From Boothiomyces macroporosus (Eukaryota; Chytridiomycota; Chytridiomycetes; Rhizophydiales; Terramycetaceae): a DNA stretch of 30,328 bases. The stretch is from positions 1 to 30,328 of the forward strand of contig JADGKB010000142.1 of assembly GCA_027604185.1 (NCBI GenBank), in the 5' to 3' direction. Under the pieces are notes generated by a model that was not told where the DNA came from, did not search any database, and saw nothing but the letters and a program-made list of their open reading frames with translations. How positions within the stretch are numbered: position 1 is the first letter of the stretch; each line of letters starts with the position of its first letter. Shown here piece after piece: positions 4,221-28,501 of the stretch. Both the position numbers and the translations under genes were made by a program.

Positions 4221-6944
4221 ATGTCTGTAGATTTTGTAAAGGACTTGGAAATATCCCTTAATAACGCTGCGGTGCTTCTTGAACGAACAAAGCAGAGAAC
4301 CAAGATAGTTGGAGATGGAAGAGATAAACCTAGCAAGCGCGACAAGGAGAATATTCCTCCCAAAGAATACGATCGGATAGAAAGTACAAATATAAACCAG
4401 TTATTAGAAATTACTAGAATTACAGAGTCGCTTCACAAGCTGCAATCGCGAATAATAAAGCAGCACTCGCTTTTGCTGAAGGAACAGTCGCAATCACTCC
4501 AGTACCAGAATATCATTCAGCTGGATAATATCAACGAACTACAGAAACGCCAAACTATGCACCAAATGAGTAGTTATCAACAGATGATTGTAATTTTTGC
4601 TAATTTAGAAACTCAATAATTCGCTAACTACTATTCCTATTCAGCGGCCAGTTGTTGTTGAACATAGATCTAAACCAATGGTCCAGAATACTACGCTTAT
4701 TCCAGAGGATATTTACTCTGTGAGTGCAAAGCAGGATATAGAGCAAACTCCAAAAGTAAAACCAATAGAATCTACAGAAAAGGGGATCCAGGCCGACCAA
4801 CCAGACAATTTAGAAAAGAAAGAATTGGAGGAAATCAAGGATAAGGTAGAATTGTTGATATCTCTCGTTCAAAAAGAAAATGAAAAGAAACTGGATTCAT
4901 TTGACTACAACATAATCAAGGACGTGATTCATTCTGAGCAAATCAATATAGAATTGAAAAAGATTGACGAGTTGATTGAAAACATCCCTAAAAAGAAAAA
5001 AGACACAAAGATTCCAAAGTGGAGCTCTGTAAAGAAAGAGACAAATATAAAGAAAATGGAACAAAGAGTTGGTGTCTCACCTACCAAAACTGCAAGTGCA
5101 TCAGTTAGGGCTCGAGCACCAATCATAAAAGAGCCAATTAGCAAGTTACCCTCTCCCAAAAAACCTGTGCTGACTCAAATTCCCTTAGCACAGCCAATGG
5201 ATTCAAATCCGATTCTTTTATCCAAAGATCCAATATTCTTGAGGAAAACAACAATCCGACCAAAATCATTAGAATTCTTGAAATCCAATGCCGCTGCAAA
5301 AAAGCCTGAAGTTATAGAAACTAGAAATATAGCTACCAGTCCGATAGAATTTAAAGAAATCAAAACAACGCCTGGGCCAGAAACGAAACCTAGCACTGTT
5401 AGTGAACCACTTGTTTCAATTCCCTCAAAAGCAACAAAAGAGGAGGCAACCAGTACATTACCAGAACCAAAACCACCATCTAAAACAGAATCAACTCAGA
5501 TTTCACCACTATTTCATCAAACTAAAAGTGTGCAATTTCAATCTCCTACAAAAGATGCTTCTATTCAACATGACTACTCTCCACCGCCAATATTTGAACT
5601 ACGAAAGCCTGTAACAGAAGAAAGAATAGAACCCATCATGGAACCAATTAGAATTCCGGTTATTGAAAAATCACTTGAAGATCGCCTAGCAGAGTGGATT
5701 AAAAGTGAAGTACTGCTTAAAGTTATTAAACAAACTGATAATGTTCCATTAGTTACTGTGAAACCACCGGTAGAAAGCGAAAATATCACCAAGGAACCAG
5801 CAGTCGATGATAAAGAAATTCAAACAGTAACAGAAGAGAGACAAATTGGTCTCGAAAAATTAAAAGAAACAGGCAAGGTAGTCGAAAAAGAGATCCTTCC
5901 AGAGCCTTCGCCACTAGTTACTGAATCTGATGTTGAACCAATTCAGATGGAACAGCCTGCAATTAAAAGTCCTGAACATAACCTGGAAACTAAAGTGGGT
6001 GATGTTGAAGATTATTTGAACGAGTCTTTCAATACTGTTTCTACGCCATTTACCCAGAAATCGTATGAGTTGTCTGAATTCGAACCAATCGTCAATGAAG
6101 ATGAACCTTCACATTTAATGGACAATACATTTGACGAATACTCGTTGGACATTATCTCTTCAGTAATCAAAGAAATGAATCAAGTTCGTGTTGTGGAACC
6201 ACCAAAGGAAATTGCAATACAAACAAGTGATACTGGTACAAGCGAGAGTGTTTCTCTCTCCAGTGCATATCCTTTACCTGAACCTCCTCTGCAAATACCA
6301 GATAGTATATTAATCCACGCTTTAGATGAAATATTAGAGCAAGAGATAAATATCCATCTTCTTGAAGCCATAATAGAAGTTAGAGAAGAAAGATATAAGG
6401 AATCTGCTGAACAATTAAAAACTGCCAAACTCCAGCCAGTACCCTCCCCAGAACAAATACAATTCCATGGATTCCAAGAAGCGCAGCAGTTATCAGAGCG
6501 TATATCAAGACTGGAAGAGTCACTAATAGAACTGGAAAAATCAAAATCAATAATTGATCCAAGTATATCCTTCATTATTGAATCTCTCAATCAGTCAGAC
6601 TCTAGCGATTCTAGTAAAACACCAAGCGTATCCCAAATAATTAGCGATAATTCTACAAGTATGTCGTTTACAATGACCAGTCTTCCAACATTTTCTGAAG
6701 GTGAGATTATTACTGGATTGTACAGTCAAGGGCAAATTATACCAAGAAAACAAGAAGTAAAGATTGAAAGAGATGGTGAGACTGAAAGTTCAGAAAAAAC
6801 ATCTTCTGGACAAGTATCTGAAGGGCTATTAAAAGGTAAAATATTAATTTATTAGACTCTATTAAAATTGTTGATGAAATTGAGCGAGCAAGAAGAATCC
6901 CATTACCAGTATCGCCAGAGGACGAAACGGAAAGCAGTATTTAA
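4221..6944 (+). CDS. Large coiled-coil/low-complexity protein, possibly TALPID3 (KIAA0586)-like
   Basis: Two long open stretches and a short last exon join through two tiny introns: 4590-4608 (GTAATTTTTGCTAATTTAG, 19 nt) and 6836-6855 (20 nt), giving an 894-aa protein. Residues about 50-125 are coiled-coil (LLEITRITESLHKLQSRIIK). The middle is rich in Lys, Glu, Pro, Ser and Thr with repeated IQT/IQAD-like motifs. Conserved-looking islands are SLEDRLAEWIKSEVLLKVI, LDIISSVIKEMNQ, ILIHALDEILEQEINIHLLE and a C-terminal FSEGEIITG. These islands and the SEGE motif recall TALPID3, a centriole/basal-body protein, which is why I suggest it, but the match is from memory and weak. If correct, it would imply a flagellated life stage. 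The real gene structure is well supported; the identity is not. Confidence 0.75.
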
Positions 6945-16180: not shown

Positions 16181-17704
16181 TTAATAATCTTGAATAGGGA
16201 CTATAGGATTATTTCGTTCATCAAACATGCCATATGATGGAATGATATAAGGTTCTTCTTCGTCACGTTCAAATGAAAAGGAATTGGTTTTTGGCGACAC
16301 TTGATTAAGCGTCCATGGTTCGGTCCAAATAGTTTGAGAGGTTTGTCGCTCCATGGTTGGTGATTGGAATGAGGACCAAGTTGAAGTTATGAGGGGCGTG
16401 TAGTCTTTTTTCAAAATTTCATCCATAGTACGTTTGTCCCATCTTTCTTCAGATTTTTTAGATTCCCACAGTTCTTTAGGTTCAGTTACTTGCTTTCGAT
16501 GTTCCCAGATTTCAAGTTCAACTTTCTTGTCCCAAAGTTCAATGCTTTCGGAAGATTGTCTTTTGCCTTTCCATTCAGGAGATGGGTAGAATTTACTATT
16601 AGGATCCCATTCGCTAGCTTCTGCTATTTGCTTTCCATTCCATTCAGAGTCGTTTTTATCCTTGTCAATATCAGGCAATGAAGTATACCGCTTCAAGTTA
16701 TTCTTTTTAAAGATCTCTACTTGAGTCTTTGGTCTATCACTGTGTACACTACCTTCCGACGAGGCAAGACTAACCCAAGCAGTACCACCACTTCCGCCCA
16801 AAAAGATATAGCCATGCTTTTCGGCCTGTTCAGCGTATGTTTTAAAGTTATCAAATCCCAACTGCTGATAAATTTGAGGATTTTTACTAGTCAGTGCCAT
16901 TCCGACTTGGCTCCTGAGTGGTTGAGAGACCCCTTTTGCTTGAAATGATTTAACAACAGATACAATGGCTTCAAAAGGAGAATCAATAGTGAATTTCTTT
17001 CGCTTTTCTTTAGGAAGCTTGATATTCTTATCGATCAGCTCAATCCAAGCAGTGCCACCAGTACCACCAAGTTGTACCAAGCCAAGTTTCTCTGCCTGTT
17101 CAGCATACATTTTAAAACCGTCTGCACCAGCTTTGGCGTAAGCTTGGCTGTTTCTAGTACTGATTTCCAAGCCTACATAGCTTCGCAACGGTTGGTTGCT
17201 TCCTTTAACCCGAAGTTCTTTGAGGATTTCTATTAACAAAGCATATTGGTGTATTTTAGATTTCTTTGCGTTAAATCTAGGATCTAGGTCTGGCTTGAAT
17301 AAGCTGTTCCAATCGTGCCAATTTAGTTTTTCTTTTTGTTTCCTTTGTTCGTCAGAATAAGGAGAATATACTACAGTCTTGAAGTTGCGGCTAGCGAGAG
17401 CGGATATCGTGCTAGAGAAATCTTTATTGGTAATTAGCATTAGAGTAAGTTTGCCTCTCTTGTGGTCCAAGCAGCAGCCAAACATCTCGATAATCATATT
17501 CCGTTCGATATGCTCTCGCTTGTTCATATCAATTACAACGCTAGGATGGCGAGCTATTTCTTTTGAGGTGAATATGGTGAATTTTGCGATTTCCTGGCCT
17601 TTCAATTTCTCTTGTATCGCTTCGATAGCTAGCAACACTGATTTGTCTGAGGGTGGTTTACAGGATTCATAGTCCCAGAATACGGCAAATCGACCAATGA
17701 CCAT
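16181..17704 (-). CDS. NYN-domain RNase-like protein with two LOTUS (OST-HTH)-like repeats
   Basis: 507 aa in one exon. Residues about 1-140 form a MARF1-type NYN/PIN-like domain: GRFAVFWDYESCKPPSDKS with Asp11, and LTLMLITNKDFSSTISALAS with a second acidic site, followed by RNFKTVVYSP. Two similar modules follow, near 148-230 and 243-320: each has a helix, QPLRSYVG or QPLRSQVG, a GxxxFKxYAEQAEKxG helix and an LGGTGGTAW or LGGSGGTAW turn, as in LOTUS winged helices. The last 180 residues are charged and probably disordered, with repeated short WxxK/E motifs (EWNGKQ, ELWDKK, ELWESKK). The expected role is RNA binding and cleavage in RNA control; substrate unknown. Confidence 0.75.
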   Translation of the reverse strand: MVIGRFAVFWDYESCKPPSDKSVLLAIEAIQEKLKGQEIAKFTIFTSKEIARHPSVVIDMNKREHIERNMIIEMFGCCLDHKRGKLTLMLITNKDFSSTISALASRNFKTVVYSPYSDEQRKQKEKLNWHDWNSLFKPDLDPRFNAKKSKIHQYALLIEILKELRVKGSNQPLRSYVGLEISTRNSQAYAKAGADGFKMYAEQAEKLGLVQLGGTGGTAWIELIDKNIKLPKEKRKKFTIDSPFEAIVSVVKSFQAKGVSQPLRSQVGMALTSKNPQIYQQLGFDNFKTYAEQAEKHGYIFLGGSGGTAWVSLASSEGSVHSDRPKTQVEIFKKNNLKRYTSLPDIDKDKNDSEWNGKQIAEASEWDPNSKFYPSPEWKGKRQSSESIELWDKKVELEIWEHRKQVTEPKELWESKKSEERWDKRTMDEILKKDYTPLITSTWSSFQSPTMERQTSQTIWTEPWTLNQVSPKTNSFSFERDEEEPYIIPSYGMFDERNNPIVPIQDY

Positions 17705-18030
17705 CAGTATTAGTTGCTATAGGTGGTTTGTAATTTTTCAAAAAAGTAAAATCAGGTGGTTGCCACTTGAAAGCACGGACAGTCCGAGACCTATTGTATT
17801 GATATTAATGCAAGCTAGTCATTTCTATTCAATATATGATCAATCTAGCCATGTATCTTTATTGATAGGCTATTTTTATGCATTACATCATCGTGGTATC
17901 CGTGAACACGATAAAAAATAATCTTGCGTTTTGTATCTATTGAAATGATTACTTGATTTCCATTGCTTTCATTTATTAGAAAAGGTTGAACACGGTGGGA
18001 ATTTACTTTGAATTTTTTTCAATCAGAAAA
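17705..18030. other. Divergent intergenic of NYN-LOTUS and TOP1
   Basis: 326 bases between two divergent starts. No gene is seen. It must contain both promoters; no clear TATA box was recognised. Confidence 0.5.
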
Positions 18031-20305
18031 ATGGCAAAGCGTACTGTGGAAGACTCTTCAGATGACGAGCCAATGGTAAGTGCTCTTAATCCAGCTTAAC
18101 GCAGTCAAAGTAATTTATTTATTAACTAGAGAAAGAGAACCAGGAAAAGGTGATTTTTATCTTACTCAGATTGTCAAATCAGAGAGTAACCAGCAAGCAA
18201 AACCAAAAGCAAAGAAGATCAAGGTAGAAAAGAAGGAAAAAATCAAAAAGGAAAAGGAAGAAAAGGAAGATTCGCCAGAGAAGGAAGATGACGATGAAGA
18301 AGAAGAACGTAAATGGTGGTTGGAAGAGAAGGAGGATAACGGAATCAAATGGACGACTTTGCAGCACCAAGGTCCTTTGTTCCCTCCGCCTTATGAGCCG
18401 CATGGTGTAAAGATGCTTTATGATGGTAATAATAATTAATTATAGGTTAATAATACTAATGTTAGGTGCGTAGTTATTAACCAAGGCAAACCTGTTGAGT
18501 TGACACCAGCAGCAGAAGAAGTCGCCAGCTTCTACGCAGCTTTGTTAGGCACAGATAACGGCAACAACCCAGTATTCCAAAAGAACTTTTTCGCTGATTT
18601 CCTCAAAACAATCAAACAGGAAAAGATTCCCAACTGTCCAATCAAAGAATTCTCAAAGTGCGACTTTACCCCAATATTTGATTACTTGAACAAAGTAAAG
18701 GAGGAAAAGAAGCAAATGAGCAAAGAAGAGAAAAAGAAATTAAAAGAAGAAAAAGAAGCGATCGATGAAATCTATGGATGGTGTACCATGGATGGACGAA
18801 AAGAAAAAGTAGGAAACTACAGGATTGAACCTCCTGGTTTGTTCAGAGGCAGAGGTAATTTGTATTAATAGTAGGTGAACATCCAAAAACTGGCTGCTTA
18901 AAATTACGCGTACAACCAGAACAAGTTACTATTAATATTGGGGCAGATGCTAAAATACCTGATCCGCCAAAGGGACACAGCTGGGGTACTGTTTCCCATG
19001 ATAATACTGTCACTTGGCTAGCAATGTGGAAAGAAAATGTAAATGAAAGCACAAAGTACATTTTCTTGGCTGCTACTTCTTCTCTTAAAGGTCAGTCAGA
19101 CATGAAGAAGTTTGAAAAAGCTAGAGAATTAAAAGTAATTTATTCTTAACCAGAAACACATTGATCACATCCGCAAATCCTATGAAGAAAATCTTAAAGA
19201 TAAAGTAATGCAGGTGCGTCAGTTGGCTACCTGCTTGTACTTTATTGACAAACTAGCTTTAAGAGCTGGTAATGAAAAGGGGGAAGATGAAGCAGATACT
19301 GTTGGTTGCTGCTCTTTGAGATACGAGCATATTACTTTGGAGCCGCCAAACAAGGTAGTATTTGATTTTTTGGGTAAAGATTCTATCCGTTATGTCAATA
19401 CTGTAGAAGTTATTGATCAGGTTTACAAGAACTTGAAAATTTTCAAAAAGGAGCCGAAAACTGTCGGAGACGATTTATTCGACCGTATCAATGTACCTAT
19501 TTTTAATCTAGACCACTTTATTAAATAAGCATTTAAATCAGTTAATGCCTGGGCTTACAGCCAAGGTATTCCGTACCTTTAACGCATCCTATACTTTCCA
19601 GGAAGAACTTCGTAAAACACCTGCTGACGGTACCATTGCTGAAAAAGTCTTGGCATACAATAGAGCAAATAGACAAGTAGCTGTCTTATGTAACCACCAA
19701 AGGGCAGTCCCTAAATCACATGGTACCCAAATGTCTAGACTGACAGACAAGGTTAGTACTAATTTATTGTAGATATTGGCTGTGAAATACCAGCGACAAG
19801 AAGTTAAACAGCAAATATTGGAATTGGAACCCTCGCTAAAGAAACAACGGCCCGAATTACTCGAGCCTGAATCAGATTTAGATGACGAGTTTATCAAACG
19901 ACATGAAATCGCATTGGAAGAAAAGGAAAAAGAACGGCTGGAAAAGCTATTGATCAAAGAAAATGAAAAGCGAAAAGAAAACGGTGAAGAGCTATTGAAC
20001 TCCCTTCCAGAACAAAAAAAGAAACAAACTATTCCAACAATGGACAAGTTGGAAAAGAAACTACAAACATTAACTGACCGAATACAAGCACAAAAAATGC
20101 AAATGGTAGACAAGGTAATTGATTCCTTATGCAGGATGAAAACAAACAAACAGCACTAGGAACTTCGAAAATCAATTACATTGATCCAAGGATTTCAGCG
20201 GCTTGGTGTAACAAGTACAATGTACCTTTGGATAAAATATTTAACCGAAGTTTACGTGAAAAGTTCAAGTGGGCGATGGAATCGGATAAAGACTGGGAAT
20301 TCTAA
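18031..20305 (+). CDS. TOP1: DNA topoisomerase I (type IB)
   Basis: Nuclear enzyme that relaxes supercoils through a 3'-phosphotyrosyl link. About 698 aa. An acidic/basic N-terminal tail leads to [34 protein letters not shown], core [17 protein letters not shown], and catalytic-site segments [18 protein letters not shown] (Arg), FLGKDSIRY (Lys), [18 protein letters not shown] (Arg, His) and [10 protein letters not shown] with the active Tyr (about 657). It ends SDKDWEF like other eukaryotic TOP1. Homology fixes introns 18426-18485 (60 nt), 18855-18874, 19135-19153, 19493-19511, 19752-19772 and 20115-20134 (19-21 nt each). An N-terminal intron begins at 18076 (GTAAGTGCTCTTAATCCAG, 19 nt), but the splicing of 18076-18169 is ambiguous. 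Confidence 0.97.
18076..18169 (+). other. Ambiguous intron cluster in the TOP1 N-terminus
   Basis: Three intron-like units sit here: 18076-18094 (GTAAGTGCTCTTAATCCAG), 18110-18129 (GTAATTTATTTATTAACTAG) and 18150-18169 (GTGATTTTTATCTTACTCAG), separated by 15- and 20-nt spacers. Several combinations keep the frame into [13 protein letters not shown]: removing only the first, removing 18076-18169 whole (94 nt), or removing the first plus 18110-18169 (60 nt). Removing each unit singly does not keep the frame. Confidence 0.6.
18426..18485 (+). other. TOP1 intron made of three contiguous 20-nt intron units
   Basis: Between MLYDG and [11 protein letters not shown], conserved as one continuous stretch in TOP1, lie exactly 60 nt. 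They divide into GTAATAATAATTAATTATAG, GTTAATAATACTAATGTTAG and GTGCGTAGTTATTAACCAAG, each with GT, AG and a TTAAT/CTAAT/TTAAC branch-like motif near its end. The exon sequence GAT G / GC AAA resumes perfectly across all three. Confidence 0.85.
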
Positions 20306-20390: not shown

Positions 20391-22438
20391 AAGATTTGAG
20401 TTTGATTTTACAAATAACTGGAAAGATTTGATTTGAACTTCAAATCTTTCGACACAGGTCAACAAAAAATTCCTTCCAAATGTCAGATCTTACACCAAGC
20501 GAATCGGCCTCAAATATTAAGTCAAACAAGAGACCAAGATCAGTTGTATGGGATCATTTTACAATATCGGACTCGGATAAAACAAAGGCAATTTGTAGTC
20601 ACTGTGCAATACACACTAACAGTTTTTCGTACAATGTAGGAGGAACGACGAATTTGATGAATCATTTAAATTCTCAGCACAAACCAATTATAAATGCTTG
20701 TGAAAATAATTCAAAACAGTTACGAATTGACGAAGCGCTGAAACTCTGTCCTGTCGTGTCGTATTCACAAGAGCTATTTGATGATCATTTAATTGATTGG
20801 ATTGTGTCAAATGACCAGCCATTCGTAGAGGTGGAATCGGAAAAATTTAAATCAATGATAAAGTTATTGAAACCAACAGTTTCAATAATGAGCTCAGATA
20901 CCGTCAAACGGAGAATCTTGGCCAAGTACGAAGTCAAATTGTCGGAAATGAAGTTTATGATGGAAACACTTGACTCGAAAGTTTCTTTTACTATGGATTG
21001 TTGGACGTCACCTAATAATCTTGCATTTTTGGGTGTAACTGGACATTTTATTGACAAAGATTGGAAAGCACACGCATATACTTTAGCATTCAAACCTTTG
21101 GATAAATCACACTGTGGATCAAATTTATATGAAGCATTTTTAGGAATACTTGAAGATTGCGGATTACGACAAAAAACTATGGGTATTACACTTGATAATG
21201 CGTCAAATAATGATGCTTTTGCAGCTTGTTTAGATCAAGATGACACTAGTTTTAGTAATTTTCGTCATATCCGTTGTTTTGCACATGTTTTAAATCTAGG
21301 AGCTCAAGCTGCCTTGAATGTGATCAAAGATGATTTAAATCAGCTTAGAGTTGGTATTCGAAAAATTAGGAGCAGTCCTCAATCATTTATCAAATTTAAA
21401 GAGTTTCAACAACCTACGGCAGATGGTAAATATTTAAAGCCAATTTTTGACGTTGTAACCCGTTGGAATTCTACGGCTGATATGCTTGAACGTTCGTTAA
21501 AGTTAAAAAATTCTTTGATTAGTTTCTTTACTGACTGGGATTCTAAAAAAAAGATTAATGAACCTTTATTATCTTTAAATCCTCAAACTTGGGCAAACTT
21601 TGAACGGATCCTCTCTTATTTACAGCCATTCCGGAAATGTACGCTTATGGTGTGTGAGGATAAATATCCCACTTTATCTTTGGTAGTTCCGCTTTACAAC
21701 AGGCTAATGGATCATTTGGATATTTGGATGACTCAAAAGACAAAGCCCGAAGAAGCTTTTCATCGAGCAATTGTTGCAGAAAGTGCAAAAATTAAGCAAT
21801 ACTACAACATGACTAGTGACGTTTATACGATTAGCACTGTGTTGGATCCTCGTTTTAAACTTGATTATTACAAAAAAAGTACCAGAAATGGTCAAGAGTC
21901 CTACCAAGAAACTTATGACATTGTTAATGTGGTATATACAACATTCTATGCTCCAGCTGCAGCTGTTACTATCGAAGAAGATAAAACCATTGATGATGAT
22001 TTTTACATATTTGACCAAGATATACCCTTAAATGCCGTCGACGAATTCAGAGAATATTGTAATGACAAAAACAAGCTAAAGGGTGGCAAAAAAGCTGATG
22101 TTTTGGGTTGGTGGAAAACTAATTCTAAAACGTATCCAAACCTTTCGAGAATGGCTAGGGACTACCTAGCTATTCCTGGAACATCTTCGTCGTCTGAGCG
22201 ACTATTTTCAACAGGCAAACATTTGATAACTGATACTAGATGCTCAATGAGTCCTACTACAATCGAGGCTTGCCAATGTCTCAAGTCATGGTTATAAATT
22301 ATCAAATCATTTCAAATATACGTCAAATACTTTTAAGATTTGAATTTGATCAAATATTTAAAATTAAGACTTGAGTTTGAAATTTTCAAATATTTAAAGT
22401 ATATTTGATCGATAGATTTGGATTTGTGTGGAGCCCTA
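20391..22438 (+). mobile_element. hAT-family DNA transposon
   Basis: The element carries an intact hAT transposase (20480-22297). Subterminal repeats AAGAYTTGARTTTGA occur at 20391-20405 on the left and at 22335-22349 and 22366-22380 on the right, all in the same orientation. A perfect inverted pair GAAAGATTTG/CAAATCTTTC (20421-20430, 20441-20450) could form a hairpin upstream of the gene. The right end probably falls at GTGTGGAGCCCTA (22438), as hAT termini read TAGGG inward. No matching left terminal repeat or 8-bp target duplication was found, so the left boundary is uncertain and may be eroded. It lies between TOP1 and the expansin-like gene. Confidence 0.75.
20480..22297 (+). CDS. hAT transposase with BED zinc finger
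   Basis: 605 aa, uninterrupted, unlike the intron-bearing host genes. Residues about 20-65 form a BED zinc finger: VVWDHFT, CSHCAIH, and TNLMNHLNSQH. The RNase H-like catalytic core shows FTMDCWTSPNNLAFLGVTGH (first Asp), GITLDNASNNDAF (second Asp) and HIRCFAHVLNLGAQAAL (CxxH). The C-terminal hAT dimerisation region has MARDYLAIPGTSSSSERLFS, containing the usual SxxSER signature and likely third acidic residue, then CQCLKSWL. The frame is complete with no disabling changes, so it may be active. Confidence 0.95.
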   Translation: MSDLTPSESASNIKSNKRPRSVVWDHFTISDSDKTKAICSHCAIHTNSFSYNVGGTTNLMNHLNSQHKPIINACENNSKQLRIDEALKLCPVVSYSQELFDDHLIDWIVSNDQPFVEVESEKFKSMIKLLKPTVSIMSSDTVKRRILAKYEVKLSEMKFMMETLDSKVSFTMDCWTSPNNLAFLGVTGHFIDKDWKAHAYTLAFKPLDKSHCGSNLYEAFLGILEDCGLRQKTMGITLDNASNNDAFAACLDQDDTSFSNFRHIRCFAHVLNLGAQAALNVIKDDLNQLRVGIRKIRSSPQSFIKFKEFQQPTADGKYLKPIFDVVTRWNSTADMLERSLKLKNSLISFFTDWDSKKKINEPLLSLNPQTWANFERILSYLQPFRKCTLMVCEDKYPTLSLVVPLYNRLMDHLDIWMTQKTKPEEAFHRAIVAESAKIKQYYNMTSDVYTISTVLDPRFKLDYYKKSTRNGQESYQETYDIVNVVYTTFYAPAAAVTIEEDKTIDDDFYIFDQDIPLNAVDEFREYCNDKNKLKGGKKADVLGWWKTNSKTYPNLSRMARDYLAIPGTSSSSERLFSTGKHLITDTRCSMSPTTIEACQCLKSWL

Positions 22439-26623: not shown

Positions 26624-27250
26624 TTAGAGAGCCAAGAAGGCAACAGCGATAGCAGCCAGGGAGAATACAGTAGATTGAGCACCAGAGACAATTGGGGCAT
26701 TGTATCCAGAGGCAGCAGTGGTAGCAGCAACTGGAAGGTCAGCAGTAGCAGTTCCGTAAACATCCGCTGCTGGGGTGGTTGCAGCAACTGGAAGGTCTTC
26801 ATCGCATCCAGTGGTGGTTGGTACAGCAACTGGAAGATCTTGGTTGTAAGCTGGGGTTGGGACAGCCTTTGGAGCATCTTCAGCGCATGGAGTGGTAGCT
26901 GGGGCAGCAACTGGAAGGTCTTGTCCATAAGCATGGGTTGGTGCAGCTACTGGAAGGTCTTGTCCATAAGCTTGAGTTGGAGCAGCCTTTGGGAGGTCTT
27001 GTCCATAAGCTTGAGTTGGAGCAACAACTGGAAGGTCTTGTCCATAAGCATGGGTTGGAGCAGCCTTTGGAAGGTCGTGGTTGTAGGCTGGAGCAACTTT
27101 TGGAAGATCGTGGTTATAAGCTTGAGTTGGAGCAGCTTTTGGGAGGTCATTGTTGTATGGAGCAGCAGTGGTAGCAACTGGAAGGTCATTTACGTAAGCG
27201 TTGTAAGCTGGAGCAGCGATGACAGCAGAGGCGATGATGAAGAATTGCAT
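26624..27250 (-). CDS. Secreted, GPI-anchored tandem-repeat protein (1)
   Basis: 208 aa with a short leader (MQFFIIASAVIAAPA) and a hydrophobic GPI-type tail (STVFSLAAIAVAFLAL). Between them is a low-complexity domain of Ala, Pro, Thr, Asp and Leu built on repeats of AYGQDLPVAAPTH and variants (AYNHDLPKAAPTQ), then less regular units with CAEDAPKAVP and CDEDLPVAATT holding the only two cysteines. Probably a cell-wall or surface coat protein. It is a paralogue of the gene at 27971-28501, sharing leader, DLPVAATT units, tail and promoter. A TATAAATA box is 41 bases upstream. The reverse strand also has a long open frame, which I regard as a shadow. Confidence 0.75.
   Translation of the reverse strand: MQFFIIASAVIAAPAYNAYVNDLPVATTAAPYNNDLPKAAPTQAYNHDLPKVAPAYNHDLPKAAPTHAYGQDLPVVAPTQAYGQDLPKAAPTQAYGQDLPVAAPTHAYGQDLPVAAPATTPCAEDAPKAVPTPAYNQDLPVAVPTTTGCDEDLPVAATTPAADVYGTATADLPVAATTAASGYNAPIVSGAQSTVFSLAAIAVAFLAL
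26899..27160 (-). repeat. Tandem 39-bp (13-codon) coding repeats
   Basis: About six consecutive units coding variants of AYGQDLPxAAPTx, nearly identical at DNA level in the middle four copies. Such repeats change copy number by slippage or recombination. Confidence 0.75.
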
Positions 27251-27970
27251 TTTTATTTCTATTTGTTGATAACTACTTTCAAAAAACTTGTATTTATATT
27301 TTTCTTCTGACAGGGAGGCGTCAATGTTAATTGGTTGCCATGTCCGGGGCGTTTGATGCGCCTTCGAAAGTTCACTGAGCGTGGAGTCAGTCAGTTTGTT
27401 TTATGTAGAAGCCATCACTTTTTTTGCGTTTCGGGACTCGAGCAACTGTTTTTAATATGTGAGCCATTCAGTAAGAATAATTATTCGCGTAGAGGGAATT
27501 GGTATATCGTGTAGCTCAATTGTTTGATATCCAATATATAGCTTGCCCAACCAAGTAATTTATTTGCCATTTGGTAACCGCGGTTTGAATCCACAAAAGT
27601 CAATGAGGCTTACTTTTGGTGAAAAATGGTATCTAAATGTTACAGATAAATATGGAGCTGTAATATGGGAACTTTAAACTATGATTAACAAAAGTGCAAC
27701 TTTTGGTAGTTTAATGTTTCTCCAGTTTAAGTTATTGAAAAGTTAAATTCAAGTACAGAAAGTTTAAATTAACTAAAGTTTACTATTATGTTTCAGCTTT
27801 GGATTCCGAGAATAATCTTGGAGTCCCTGTAGTTGAACCAGAGGTAATACCAACTACTGGAGTAAAGTCAAAGTCAATGAGGTGGAATCAAGTAAAGCAC
27901 AACTATATGAATTGAGAATTTATTAAATGTTATTATAAACAGGTTTTACAGATTTCAAATCAGATTACGT
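27251..27970. other. Intergenic between the two secreted repeat genes
   Basis: The left end is the promoter of the first repeat gene: TATAAATA on the minus strand at 27291-27298, and a CATGTCCGG patch at 27343-27351 that resembles CATGTCTGG upstream of the second gene (28579-28587). Around 27795-27915 on the plus strand is a short coding-like patch (ALDSENNLGVPVVEPEVIP, KSMRWNQVKHNYMN) with no start; its origin is unknown. No other gene was recognised. Confidence 0.4.
27291..27298 (-). promoter_or_regulatory. TATA box of repeat gene 1
   Basis: TATAAATA on the minus strand, 41 bases before the ATG. The equivalent for the paralogue is at 28543-28550. Confidence 0.5.
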
Positions 27971-28501
27971 TTACAATACAAGCAAGAAGGCAGCAGCAGC
28001 CAAAACTGAAAAACCAGCAGTTTGTGCACTGCTGATTACGTTAGCGCCATATGGAGCAGAGGTAGTTGCAGCAACTGGAAGATCTGCAGTAGCAGTTGGG
28101 TAGGAAGCAACAGCAGCTGGAGTTCCGTATACTGGAGCAGTGGTAACTTCAGGAGCATCTTCTTCACATTCATCATAAGCAGTTGTGGTGGCTACAACTG
28201 GTAGGTCTTGTTCGCAAGGAGTAGTGGTAGCAACAACTGGCAAATCAGTAGTTTGAGCTCCATAACCTCCATACGCAGAAGGAGTAGCAATGACTGGAGA
28301 GTCTGTGGTTTGAACACCGTATGCGGCTCCAACTGGAGCTTGGGTCTGAGCAGCATAAGCTGCAACTGATGAAGAGTAAGCTGCCATTTCTTCAGGGCAG
28401 TTGGTGTTGGTTGGGGTAGGGATAGCAACTGGAGCTTGTTGACCATAAGCACCATAAGCAGGAGCAGCGATAGCGACGGAAGCGAGTACAATGAATTTCA
28501 T
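27971..28501 (-). CDS. Secreted, GPI-anchored repeat protein (2)
   Basis: 176 aa. The ATG at 28501 is used because it gives the leader MKFIVLASVAIAAPAYGAYG; nine upstream in-frame codons begin with GTG. The mature part has repeats of DLPVVATTT and DLPVAATTS, four cysteines (TNCPEEM, TPCEQD, DECEED) and Ala/Tyr/Gln-rich spacers (AAYGVQTTDSPVIATP), ending in a hydrophobic GPI-type tail (TAGFSVLAAAAFLLVL). It is less regular than its paralogue at 26624-27250. Both share the same leader pattern, the sequence GAAATAAAAATG around the start and a TATAAATA box at a similar distance. Confidence 0.72.
   Translation of the reverse strand: MKFIVLASVAIAAPAYGAYGQQAPVAIPTPTNTNCPEEMAAYSSSVAAYAAQTQAPVGAAYGVQTTDSPVIATPSAYGGYGAQTTDLPVVATTTPCEQDLPVVATTTAYDECEEDAPEVTTAPVYGTPAAVASYPTATADLPVAATTSAPYGANVISSAQTAGFSVLAAAAFLLVL

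What the first reader, a model, noticed from the sequence alone, without database searches (positions are those of the whole stretch)
18426..18485. Three 20-nt introns directly abutting, with no exon between
The single conserved exon junction in TOP1 (MLYDG / KPVELTP) is interrupted by exactly 60 nt that split into three complete 20-nt intron units, each with GT, branch-like motif and AG. Either the outer sites are used as one intron, or the units are removed stepwise so that each splice recreates a junction for the next. It suggests intron multiplication by tandem duplication or insertion at the same site, and zero-length exons, which I do not know from other genes.
Basis: partly seen in the sequence, partly recalled or inferred. 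Interest (0 to 1): 0.9.

Follow-up and report, generated by a model that had tools for sequence, protein, structure and literature searches.

The report
Back-to-back 20-letter introns without exons
In a soil chytrid fungus whose introns are only about 20 letters long, some genes carry several complete introns joined end to end with no exon between them, so the cell probably has to cut them out one after another.

Summary
Confirmed, and wider than reported. The window is contig C142 of a 15.2 Mb chytrid genome, Boothiomyces macroporosus. TOP1 is interrupted at [10 protein letters not shown] by exactly 60 nt made of three 20-nt GT..AG units. Yeast TOP1 aligns ungapped across the junction. All 7 states that keep one or more units give a premature stop. 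The public 48-nt intron model adds VINQ, absent from the other 104 readable TOP1 proteins. The genome's introns are about 20 nt: 192 of 269 called introns are 18-24 nt under a flat length prior. TAGGTA..TAGGTA pairs peak at one-intron spacing: 45 of 76 at 19-23 nt, 33 loci. Whole arrays interrupt PP2A-C (5 units), glycogen debranching enzyme (6), MGM101 (9) and others. Adjacent units are mostly as unlike as random introns yet keep AG|GT, so internal sites look selected. MGM101 holds near-identical neighbours, a sign of tandem duplication. Best reading: trains of minimal introns removed one at a time through true zero-length exons. Removal order is inferred; no RNA was available. Drosophila ratchet points resemble zero-nucleotide exons but need a cryptic exon. 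My searches found no report of such trains.

The parts
18426..18445 (+). array unit 1, 20 nt, GTAATAATAATTAATTATAG
   Evidence: score 9.95, 75th percentile of called introns
18446..18465 (+). array unit 2, 20 nt, GTTAATAATACTAATGTTAG (TACTAAT branch-like motif)
   Evidence: score 6.52, 23rd percentile
18466..18485 (+). array unit 3, 20 nt, GTGCGTAGTTATTAACCAAG (weak donor, AAG acceptor)
   Evidence: score 3.35, 4th percentile; its removal is required by the ungapped protein junction
18170..18425 (+). TOP1 coding sequence just upstream of the array, ends ...MLYDG (phase 1); its 5' limit depends on the unresolved region 18095-18169
18486..18854 (+). TOP1 exon downstream, starts (G)KPVELTP
18076..18094 (+). 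upstream TOP1 intron, 19 nt; the gene structure between 18095 and 18169 is unresolved
18855..18874 (+). ordinary TOP1 intron, 20 nt
19135..19153 (+). ordinary TOP1 intron, 19 nt
19493..19511 (+). ordinary TOP1 intron, 19 nt
19752..19772 (+). ordinary TOP1 intron, 21 nt
20115..20134 (+). ordinary TOP1 intron, 20 nt
18031..20305 (+). TOP1 gene, predicted start to stop codon
   Evidence: top hit P0001, DNA topoisomerase 1 of Boothiomyces macroporosus, on a 30328-bp contig

Best explanation
The 60 nt are three complete spliceosomal introns joined end to end in the chytrid Boothiomyces macroporosus. Its spliceosome works mainly on introns of 19-24 nt, most with a YTNAY branch motif 2-3 nt before the AG. 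Mechanism: each unit is recognised by intron definition. A removal joins the upstream exon's G to the next unit's GT (or the previous AG to the downstream exon), so the next unit is again a complete intron with its own sites. Units therefore leave one at a time, in any order, through true zero-length exons. Arrays begin by tandem duplication of a whole intron, which is neutral when the copy brings its own GT, branch point and AG. They then diverge while each unit's sites stay under selection, because the fused 40-180 nt stretch is a poor substrate. SHOWN: the array, its exact excision at protein level, the genome's intron size, and recurrence of arrays up to nine units. INFERRED: stepwise removal, the upper size limit, and duplication as the origin of the TOP1 array.
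For: Intron size: under a flat 15-150 nt prior on 231 kb, 192 of 269 called introns are 18-24 nt (88 at 20, 45 at 19, 37 at 21). Spacing genome-wide: TAGGTA..TAGGTA pairs fall 45 of 76 at 19-23 nt, 9.0 per spacing against 1.2 elsewhere; counted by locus, 33 against 30, binomial P 4e-11. The weaker pair TAGGTA..AAGGTA: 15 of 39. Abutting patterns exceed versions spaced by 2 nt: 46 v 9 and 58 v 17. Coding-gap search over 120 of 122 junction hits: 114 gaps, 73 coding-supported, 23 perfectly tiled; null tiling is 0 of 17,369, 0 of 28,109 and 0 of 21,712 in the longer classes. Homologues align ungapped at the junction of the excised array: TOP1 x3, PP2A-C x5, 110 nt, RPT1 x2, glycogen debranching enzyme x6, 133 nt, tyrosine aminotransferase x2; MGM101 x9, 179 nt, residues 17-89 to profile 42-114, no net gap. 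Domains merely span it in ING x5, CTLH x2 and endosulfine x2. Adjacent units: median identity 0.64 against 0.65 for random introns, boundaries intact; 3 of 56 pairs exceed the 99.9% null.
Against: No RNA evidence. Internal units score lower than single introns (mean 5.73, n=30, against 8.24, n=192; first units 6.65, last 7.17), and TOP1 unit 3 is weak, so some internal sites may be little used. One apparent 45-nt intron (C1, plus strand, 0-based 109914) stayed unresolved, and 32 of 70 calls of 38 nt or more passed my support filter, most not examined, so longer introns may be spliceable. In C1:1-200000, a sample not chosen for the finding, none of the 8 abutting unit-like pairs had coding support for joint removal. 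22 of the 73 supported gaps were long and not tiled. Arrays were found by patterns that demand AG|GT, so decayed arrays would be under-counted. 28 of 73 supported hits were single introns whose preceding AG is exon, a bias that the spaced control does not remove.
Confidence: 0.72

Rival explanations
1. The outer sites are used: one 60-nt intron is removed in a single reaction and the inner AG|GT sites are relics of past duplications.
For: Outer removal gives the same mRNA. Internal units score lower than single introns. One apparent 45-nt intron is unresolved.
Against: Units have diverged to random identity (median 0.64 v 0.65), yet 10 of 29 coding-supported gaps over 47 nt are tiled at every internal boundary (in one, L032, the last tile proved to be exon); chance is about 0.1% or less per gap. 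Called introns cluster at 18-24 nt. Two that looked long score better as GC-AG introns of 21 and 20 nt (37.2 v 34.4; 47.9 v 46.0).
Confidence: 0.2
2. Repeated insertion: new introns inserted next to an existing one at a G|G site (introner-like or by reverse splicing), not duplication.
For: Most adjacent units are no more alike than random introns (53 of 56 pairs do not exceed the 99.9% null).
Against: MGM101 and L025 contain identical or near-identical neighbours. Old duplications would also look random. No mobile intron family was searched for.
Confidence: 0.2
3. The public model is right: a 48-nt intron 18426-18473, and the protein carries VINQ.
For: Coding score is about equal (72.5 v 71.7). 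It is the deposited model (P0001).
Against: The other 104 readable TOP1 proteins keep the fixed spacing without the insert; 15 of 120 were not readable. Its acceptor scores -5.46, below the minimum 0.1 of 192 called short introns. The same model drops two conserved exon stretches next to 19-nt introns.
Confidence: 0.02
4. Chance subdivision of an ordinary 60-nt intron.
For: The region is AT-rich and unit 3 is weak.
Against: 0.1% null tiling rate; genome-wide spacing peak; arrays of 5, 6 and 9 units.
Confidence: 0.03

Closest known systems
Recursive splicing at Drosophila ratchet points (zero-nucleotide exons)
   Same: Acceptor and donor juxtaposed as AG|GT; splicing regenerates a donor; successive removal.
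   Different: There within long introns, and it needs a cryptic exon at the ratchet point (PMC8605326, passages seen). Here the next acceptor is only about 20 nt on and the next unit is itself an intron.
Stwintrons (spliceosomal twin introns, fungi)
   Same: Composite fungal introns removed by consecutive reactions.
   Different: Nested: an internal intron interrupts a splice element of the external one (abstract starts in a listing; PMC7138796, passages). Here every unit keeps its own complete elements and they abut; up to nine units.
Dual-specific AGGT splice sites and the human UBC array
   Same: AGGT acts as acceptor or donor; tandem array of such sites.
   Different: UBC sites delimit ubiquitin monomers and give variable isoforms (PMC10809524, abstract and section 6 read). 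Here retained units break the frame.
Tiny introns of Stentor (15-16 nt) and of chlorarachniophyte nucleomorphs (about 19-20 nt, recalled)
   Same: Narrow, extreme intron length.
   Different: 'tandem' does not occur in the main text of the Stentor paper (PMC9505925, passages). Two nucleomorph papers were seen only as a listing. Here a chytrid fungus, plus trains.

Membership tests
Ultrashort spliceosomal introns | Narrow length peak near 20 nt genome-wide | tested here: met
   192 of 269 called introns 18-24 nt with a flat length prior, in a 231-kb sample
Ultrashort spliceosomal introns | Major (U2) spliceosome present | tested here: met
   two U2 snRNA loci over the Rfam cut-off; a U2AF large-subunit-like match, 230.7 bits, below the curated cut-off of 310.3 when searched without regard to introns
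Recursive splicing at ratchet points | Juxtaposed AG|GT with the two sides used in successive reactions | tested here: inconclusive
   AG|GT present and kept in diverged arrays; successive use not testable without RNA
Recursive splicing at ratchet points | Cryptic RS-exon at the ratchet point | tested here: inconclusive
   inside arrays the next acceptor lies 19-24 nt after each AG|GT, which leaves little room; alternative downstream donors were not searched for
Stwintron | Internal intron interrupts donor, branch or acceptor of an external intron | tested here: not met
   the 82 units of the 26 catalogued arrays each begin GT, end AG and abut the next; they were defined that way, and TOP1, PP2A-C and other arrays tile their protein-defined gap exactly
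Introner | Many sequence-similar copies dispersed at unrelated sites | not tested
   only within-array similarity was measured
UBC-type dual-specific site array | Array sites delimit coding repeat monomers | tested here: not met
   in TOP1 every state that retains a unit gives a premature stop, 7 of 7

The most novel reading that the evidence does not exclude
This fungus's spliceosome has a hard upper limit near 24 nt. An intron that grows by duplication cannot be removed in one step, so it persists as a train of complete introns, up to nine, spliced one by one through genuine zero-length exons by pure intron definition and without any RS-exon.
Probability: 0.5. Interest if true: 0.9.

Novelty: new variant of a known kind. 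Interest (0 to 1): 0.82.

Why it matters
If true, it is a natural system with real zero-length exons, a contrast to Drosophila ratchet points, which need a cryptic exon. It catches intron duplication at every stage, from identical neighbours to diverged units, which makes one route of intron gain directly testable. It asks how a spliceosome measures a 20-nt intron and what its upper limit is. In practice, the public TOP1 model of this species is damaged around such introns, and other genes are probably affected too (inference).

Tried and rejected
Rejected: chance subdivision and the public 48-nt model. Rejected as arrays: all 8 abutting unit-like pairs of C1:1-200000 and one more in the window at 6814 (listed; tested). 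The last 18-nt 'unit' of L032, first tiled as a seventh, is exon: debranching enzyme GYNLVTAPYL (translation checked). Long introns: 32 of 70 calls of 38 nt or more passed my filter, one of them the TOP1 array. I looked at 12 non-array calls of 41-150 nt, not at the rest. Many look like gene merges by eye. Two score better as GC-AG introns of 21 and 20 nt. One at C1 offset 28411 scores better as 62 nt (28.3 v 24.6), but its 20-nt version restores a regular leucine-rich repeat by eye. One of 45 nt is unresolved. Of 19 joined array proteins scanned by Pfam, 4 had no family. In others the match does not cross the junction (polyprenyl synthetase, DnaJ) or is below the curated cut-off (VWA, RINT1, Sos7). 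Spanning matches differ in net length from the profile: ING 109 residues to 100, endosulfine 81 to 76, CTLH 127 to 129, so exactness is not shown there. The tool's backwards controls were 6, 16 and 29; for they were 252 and 340, more than the matches themselves. I take these to be common words read backwards and relied on the spacing profile instead. Four of the 26 matches in the spaced controls are also abutting matches (AGAGGT). The N-terminal TOP1 structure (18095-18169) stayed unresolved. Literature searches listed no paper on abutting intron trains, and no listed title is an intron study of this genus. Only open-licence papers are held, and most listed papers were not opened. Of PMC5639578, PMC7138796, PMC8605326 and PMC9505925 I saw passages only.

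Full report
WHAT THE WINDOW IS. The window is contig C142, bases 1-30328, of a 15,203,306-base, 216-contig genome. The best database match to its TOP1 is DNA topoisomerase 1 of Boothiomyces macroporosus, on a contig of 30328 bases. This is a chytrid (Rhizophydiales, Terramycetaceae).

THE OBSERVATION. TOP1 runs from 18031 to 20305. At 18426-18485 the reading frame is broken by exactly 60 nt, which split into three 20-nt units, each GT...AG with a YTNAY-like motif just before the end. Joining the flanks gives [12 protein letters not shown], which aligns without a gap at this place to yeast TOP1 (1ois). Coding score is 71.7 for removing all 60 nt, against 31.6-40.2 for removing one unit or two adjacent units, and all seven states that retain one or more units end in a premature stop. 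The public protein P0001 uses a 48-nt intron and carries an extra VINQ; its coding score is about equal, 72.5. Of 120 TOP1 proteins, 105 could be read at this place; 104 keep a fixed spacing and only P0001 has the insert. Its acceptor scores -5.46, where the lowest of 192 called introns has 0.1. P0001 also lacks two conserved exon stretches next to 19-nt introns, so the annotation seems unable to use such short introns (inference).

THE GENOME'S INTRONS. A simple gene finder with a flat length prior of 15-150 nt was run on 231 kb (C1:1-200000 and the window). It called 269 introns, of which 192 are 18-24 nt: 88 of 20, 45 of 19, 37 of 21, 16 of 22, 5 of 23 and 1 of 24. Where a YTNAY motif is found it mostly starts 9 or 10 nt before the intron end; 34 of 195 introns had none. 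That leaves no room for a pyrimidine tract. The longer calls are a thin scatter; many look like gene merges, but I examined only 12 of them. The sister genus may share the trait: Terramyces TOP1 (P0002) has a 7-residue insert RLQLMIG exactly where B. macroporosus has its intron 18855-18874, and a 21-nt GT..AG intron would encode it if retained (inference from the protein only).

ARRAYS GENOME-WIDE. Two patterns for abutting units gave 46 and 58 matches; the same patterns with two extra bases between AG and GT gave 9 and 17. A search that assumes no intron structure, TAGGTA followed by TAGGTA at 7-37 nt, gave 76 pairs; 45 lie at 19-23 nt, 9.0 per spacing against 1.2 at the other 26 spacings. 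Pairs within one array are not independent; counted by locus there are 33 against 30, binomial P 4e-11. TAGGTA followed by AAGGTA shows a weaker peak, 15 of 39. I fetched 120 of the 122 matches. For each I sought the best coding-compatible gap of any length up to 200 nt, with no requirement for tiling. Of 114 distinct gaps, 73 had coding support on both sides: 28 were single introns, so the AG before them belonged to the exon; 23 were perfectly tiled by abutting units; 22 were long and not tiled. By chance, tiling occurs in 265 of 12,168 GT..AG intervals of 38-46 nt, 14 of 13,340 of 57-66 nt, and none of 17,369, 28,109 and 21,712 in the three longer classes. The two-unit arrays were selected by their one junction, so for them only the coding evidence counts.

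HOMOLOGY CHECKS. Solved structures align ungapped at the junction of the excised array in PP2A-C (5 units, 110 nt), RPT1 (2 units), tyrosine aminotransferase (2 units) and glycogen debranching enzyme (6 units, 133 nt). In the last, an 18-nt piece first tiled as a seventh unit proved to be exon. In MGM101 (9 units, 179 nt) residues 17-89 match profile positions 42-114 with no net gap; its last two units score only 2.3 and 2.7. In ING, CTLH and endosulfine proteins a Pfam domain spans the junction, with net length differences, so exact excision is not shown there. Other arrays rest on coding score alone, and for some the Pfam match does not cross the junction.

HOW ARRAYS ARISE AND PERSIST. In a catalogue of 26 arrays with 82 units (four added by hand, see Tried and rejected), adjacent units have median identity 0.64; random pairs of single introns have 0.65. 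Three of 56 neighbouring pairs exceed the 99.9% point, in MGM101 and L025, where neighbours are identical or nearly so. So whole introns do duplicate in tandem, and most arrays are old. TOP1 units 1 and 2 are 80% alike (98th percentile), units 2 and 3 are 55%. That old, unlike units still meet at exact AG|GT boundaries suggests that the inner sites are needed. Against this, internal units score lower than single introns (5.73 against 8.24), so their use may be less efficient. A catalogue chosen by AG|GT patterns cannot show how often boundaries decay.

MECHANISM. The most likely course is one-at-a-time removal under intron definition. After any unit leaves, each remaining unit is still a complete intron; in TOP1 the exon end GATG always meets a GT. 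A zero-length exon cannot be exon-defined. Acceptor and donor overlap at AG|GT, so neighbouring units are probably not bound at the same time (inference). U2 snRNA and a U2AF-like match are present. The alternative, one removal through the outer sites, gives the same mRNA and is excluded by no RNA evidence here; I give it 0.2.

COMPARISON. Drosophila ratchet points appear to be zero-nucleotide exons but need a cryptic exon (PMC8605326, passages). Stwintrons are nested rather than abutting (listing, passages). Dual-specific AGGT sites in UBC delimit ubiquitin monomers (PMC10809524, abstract and section 6). Stentor has 15-16-nt introns (PMC9505925, passages). None of the literature searches listed a paper on trains of complete abutting introns.

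FREQUENCY. Arrays are uncommon. In C1:1-200000, none of 8 abutting unit-like pairs was supported. The patterns together would catch about 29% of random abutting pairs, so 22 supported non-duplicate arrays among the hits suggest something of the order of 100 in the genome; this is a rough extrapolation.

Searches were run as a check. They replaced the pair-based P value by a locus-based one, completed the test of C1 pairs, and confirmed the TOP1 spacing count.

Noticed in passing
window 18031-20305; P0001: The public TOP1 protein of this species drops conserved exon stretches and adds VINQ beside 19-20-nt introns. The public proteome is probably damaged in other genes too.
   Followed up: partly
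Terramyces protein P0002: A 7-residue insert RLQLMIG at the site of the 18855-18874 intron fits a retained 21-nt GT..AG intron, so tiny introns may be a family trait.
   Followed up: partly
C1:1-200000 sample (L002-L021 joined), minus-strand offset 164823 and plus-strand offset 1833, 0-based: Likely GC-AG introns of 21 and 20 nt; they score better than the longer GT-AG readings.
   Followed up: partly
window 20432-22297 (+): Open frame for a hAT transposase with BED finger, hAT RNase-H-like and dimerisation domains, just downstream of TOP1.
   Followed up: partly
window 16181-17716 (-): Long open frame with a weak NYN-domain match, below the Pfam cut-off.
   Followed up: no
window 26630-27250 and 27960-28500 (-): Two neighbouring stretches that look like genes for repeat-rich, related proteins by eye; the first has no Pfam match, the second was not scanned.
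   Followed up: no
C49 and C100; C1 and C173: The same array sequences occur on two contigs each (L062/L130, L063/L131, L041/L076), so the assembly holds duplicated or haplotype copies.
   Followed up: no
L025 (C8:114290-115320): Two separate runs of three abutting units lie within about 400 nt, one of them with identical neighbouring units.
   Followed up: partly
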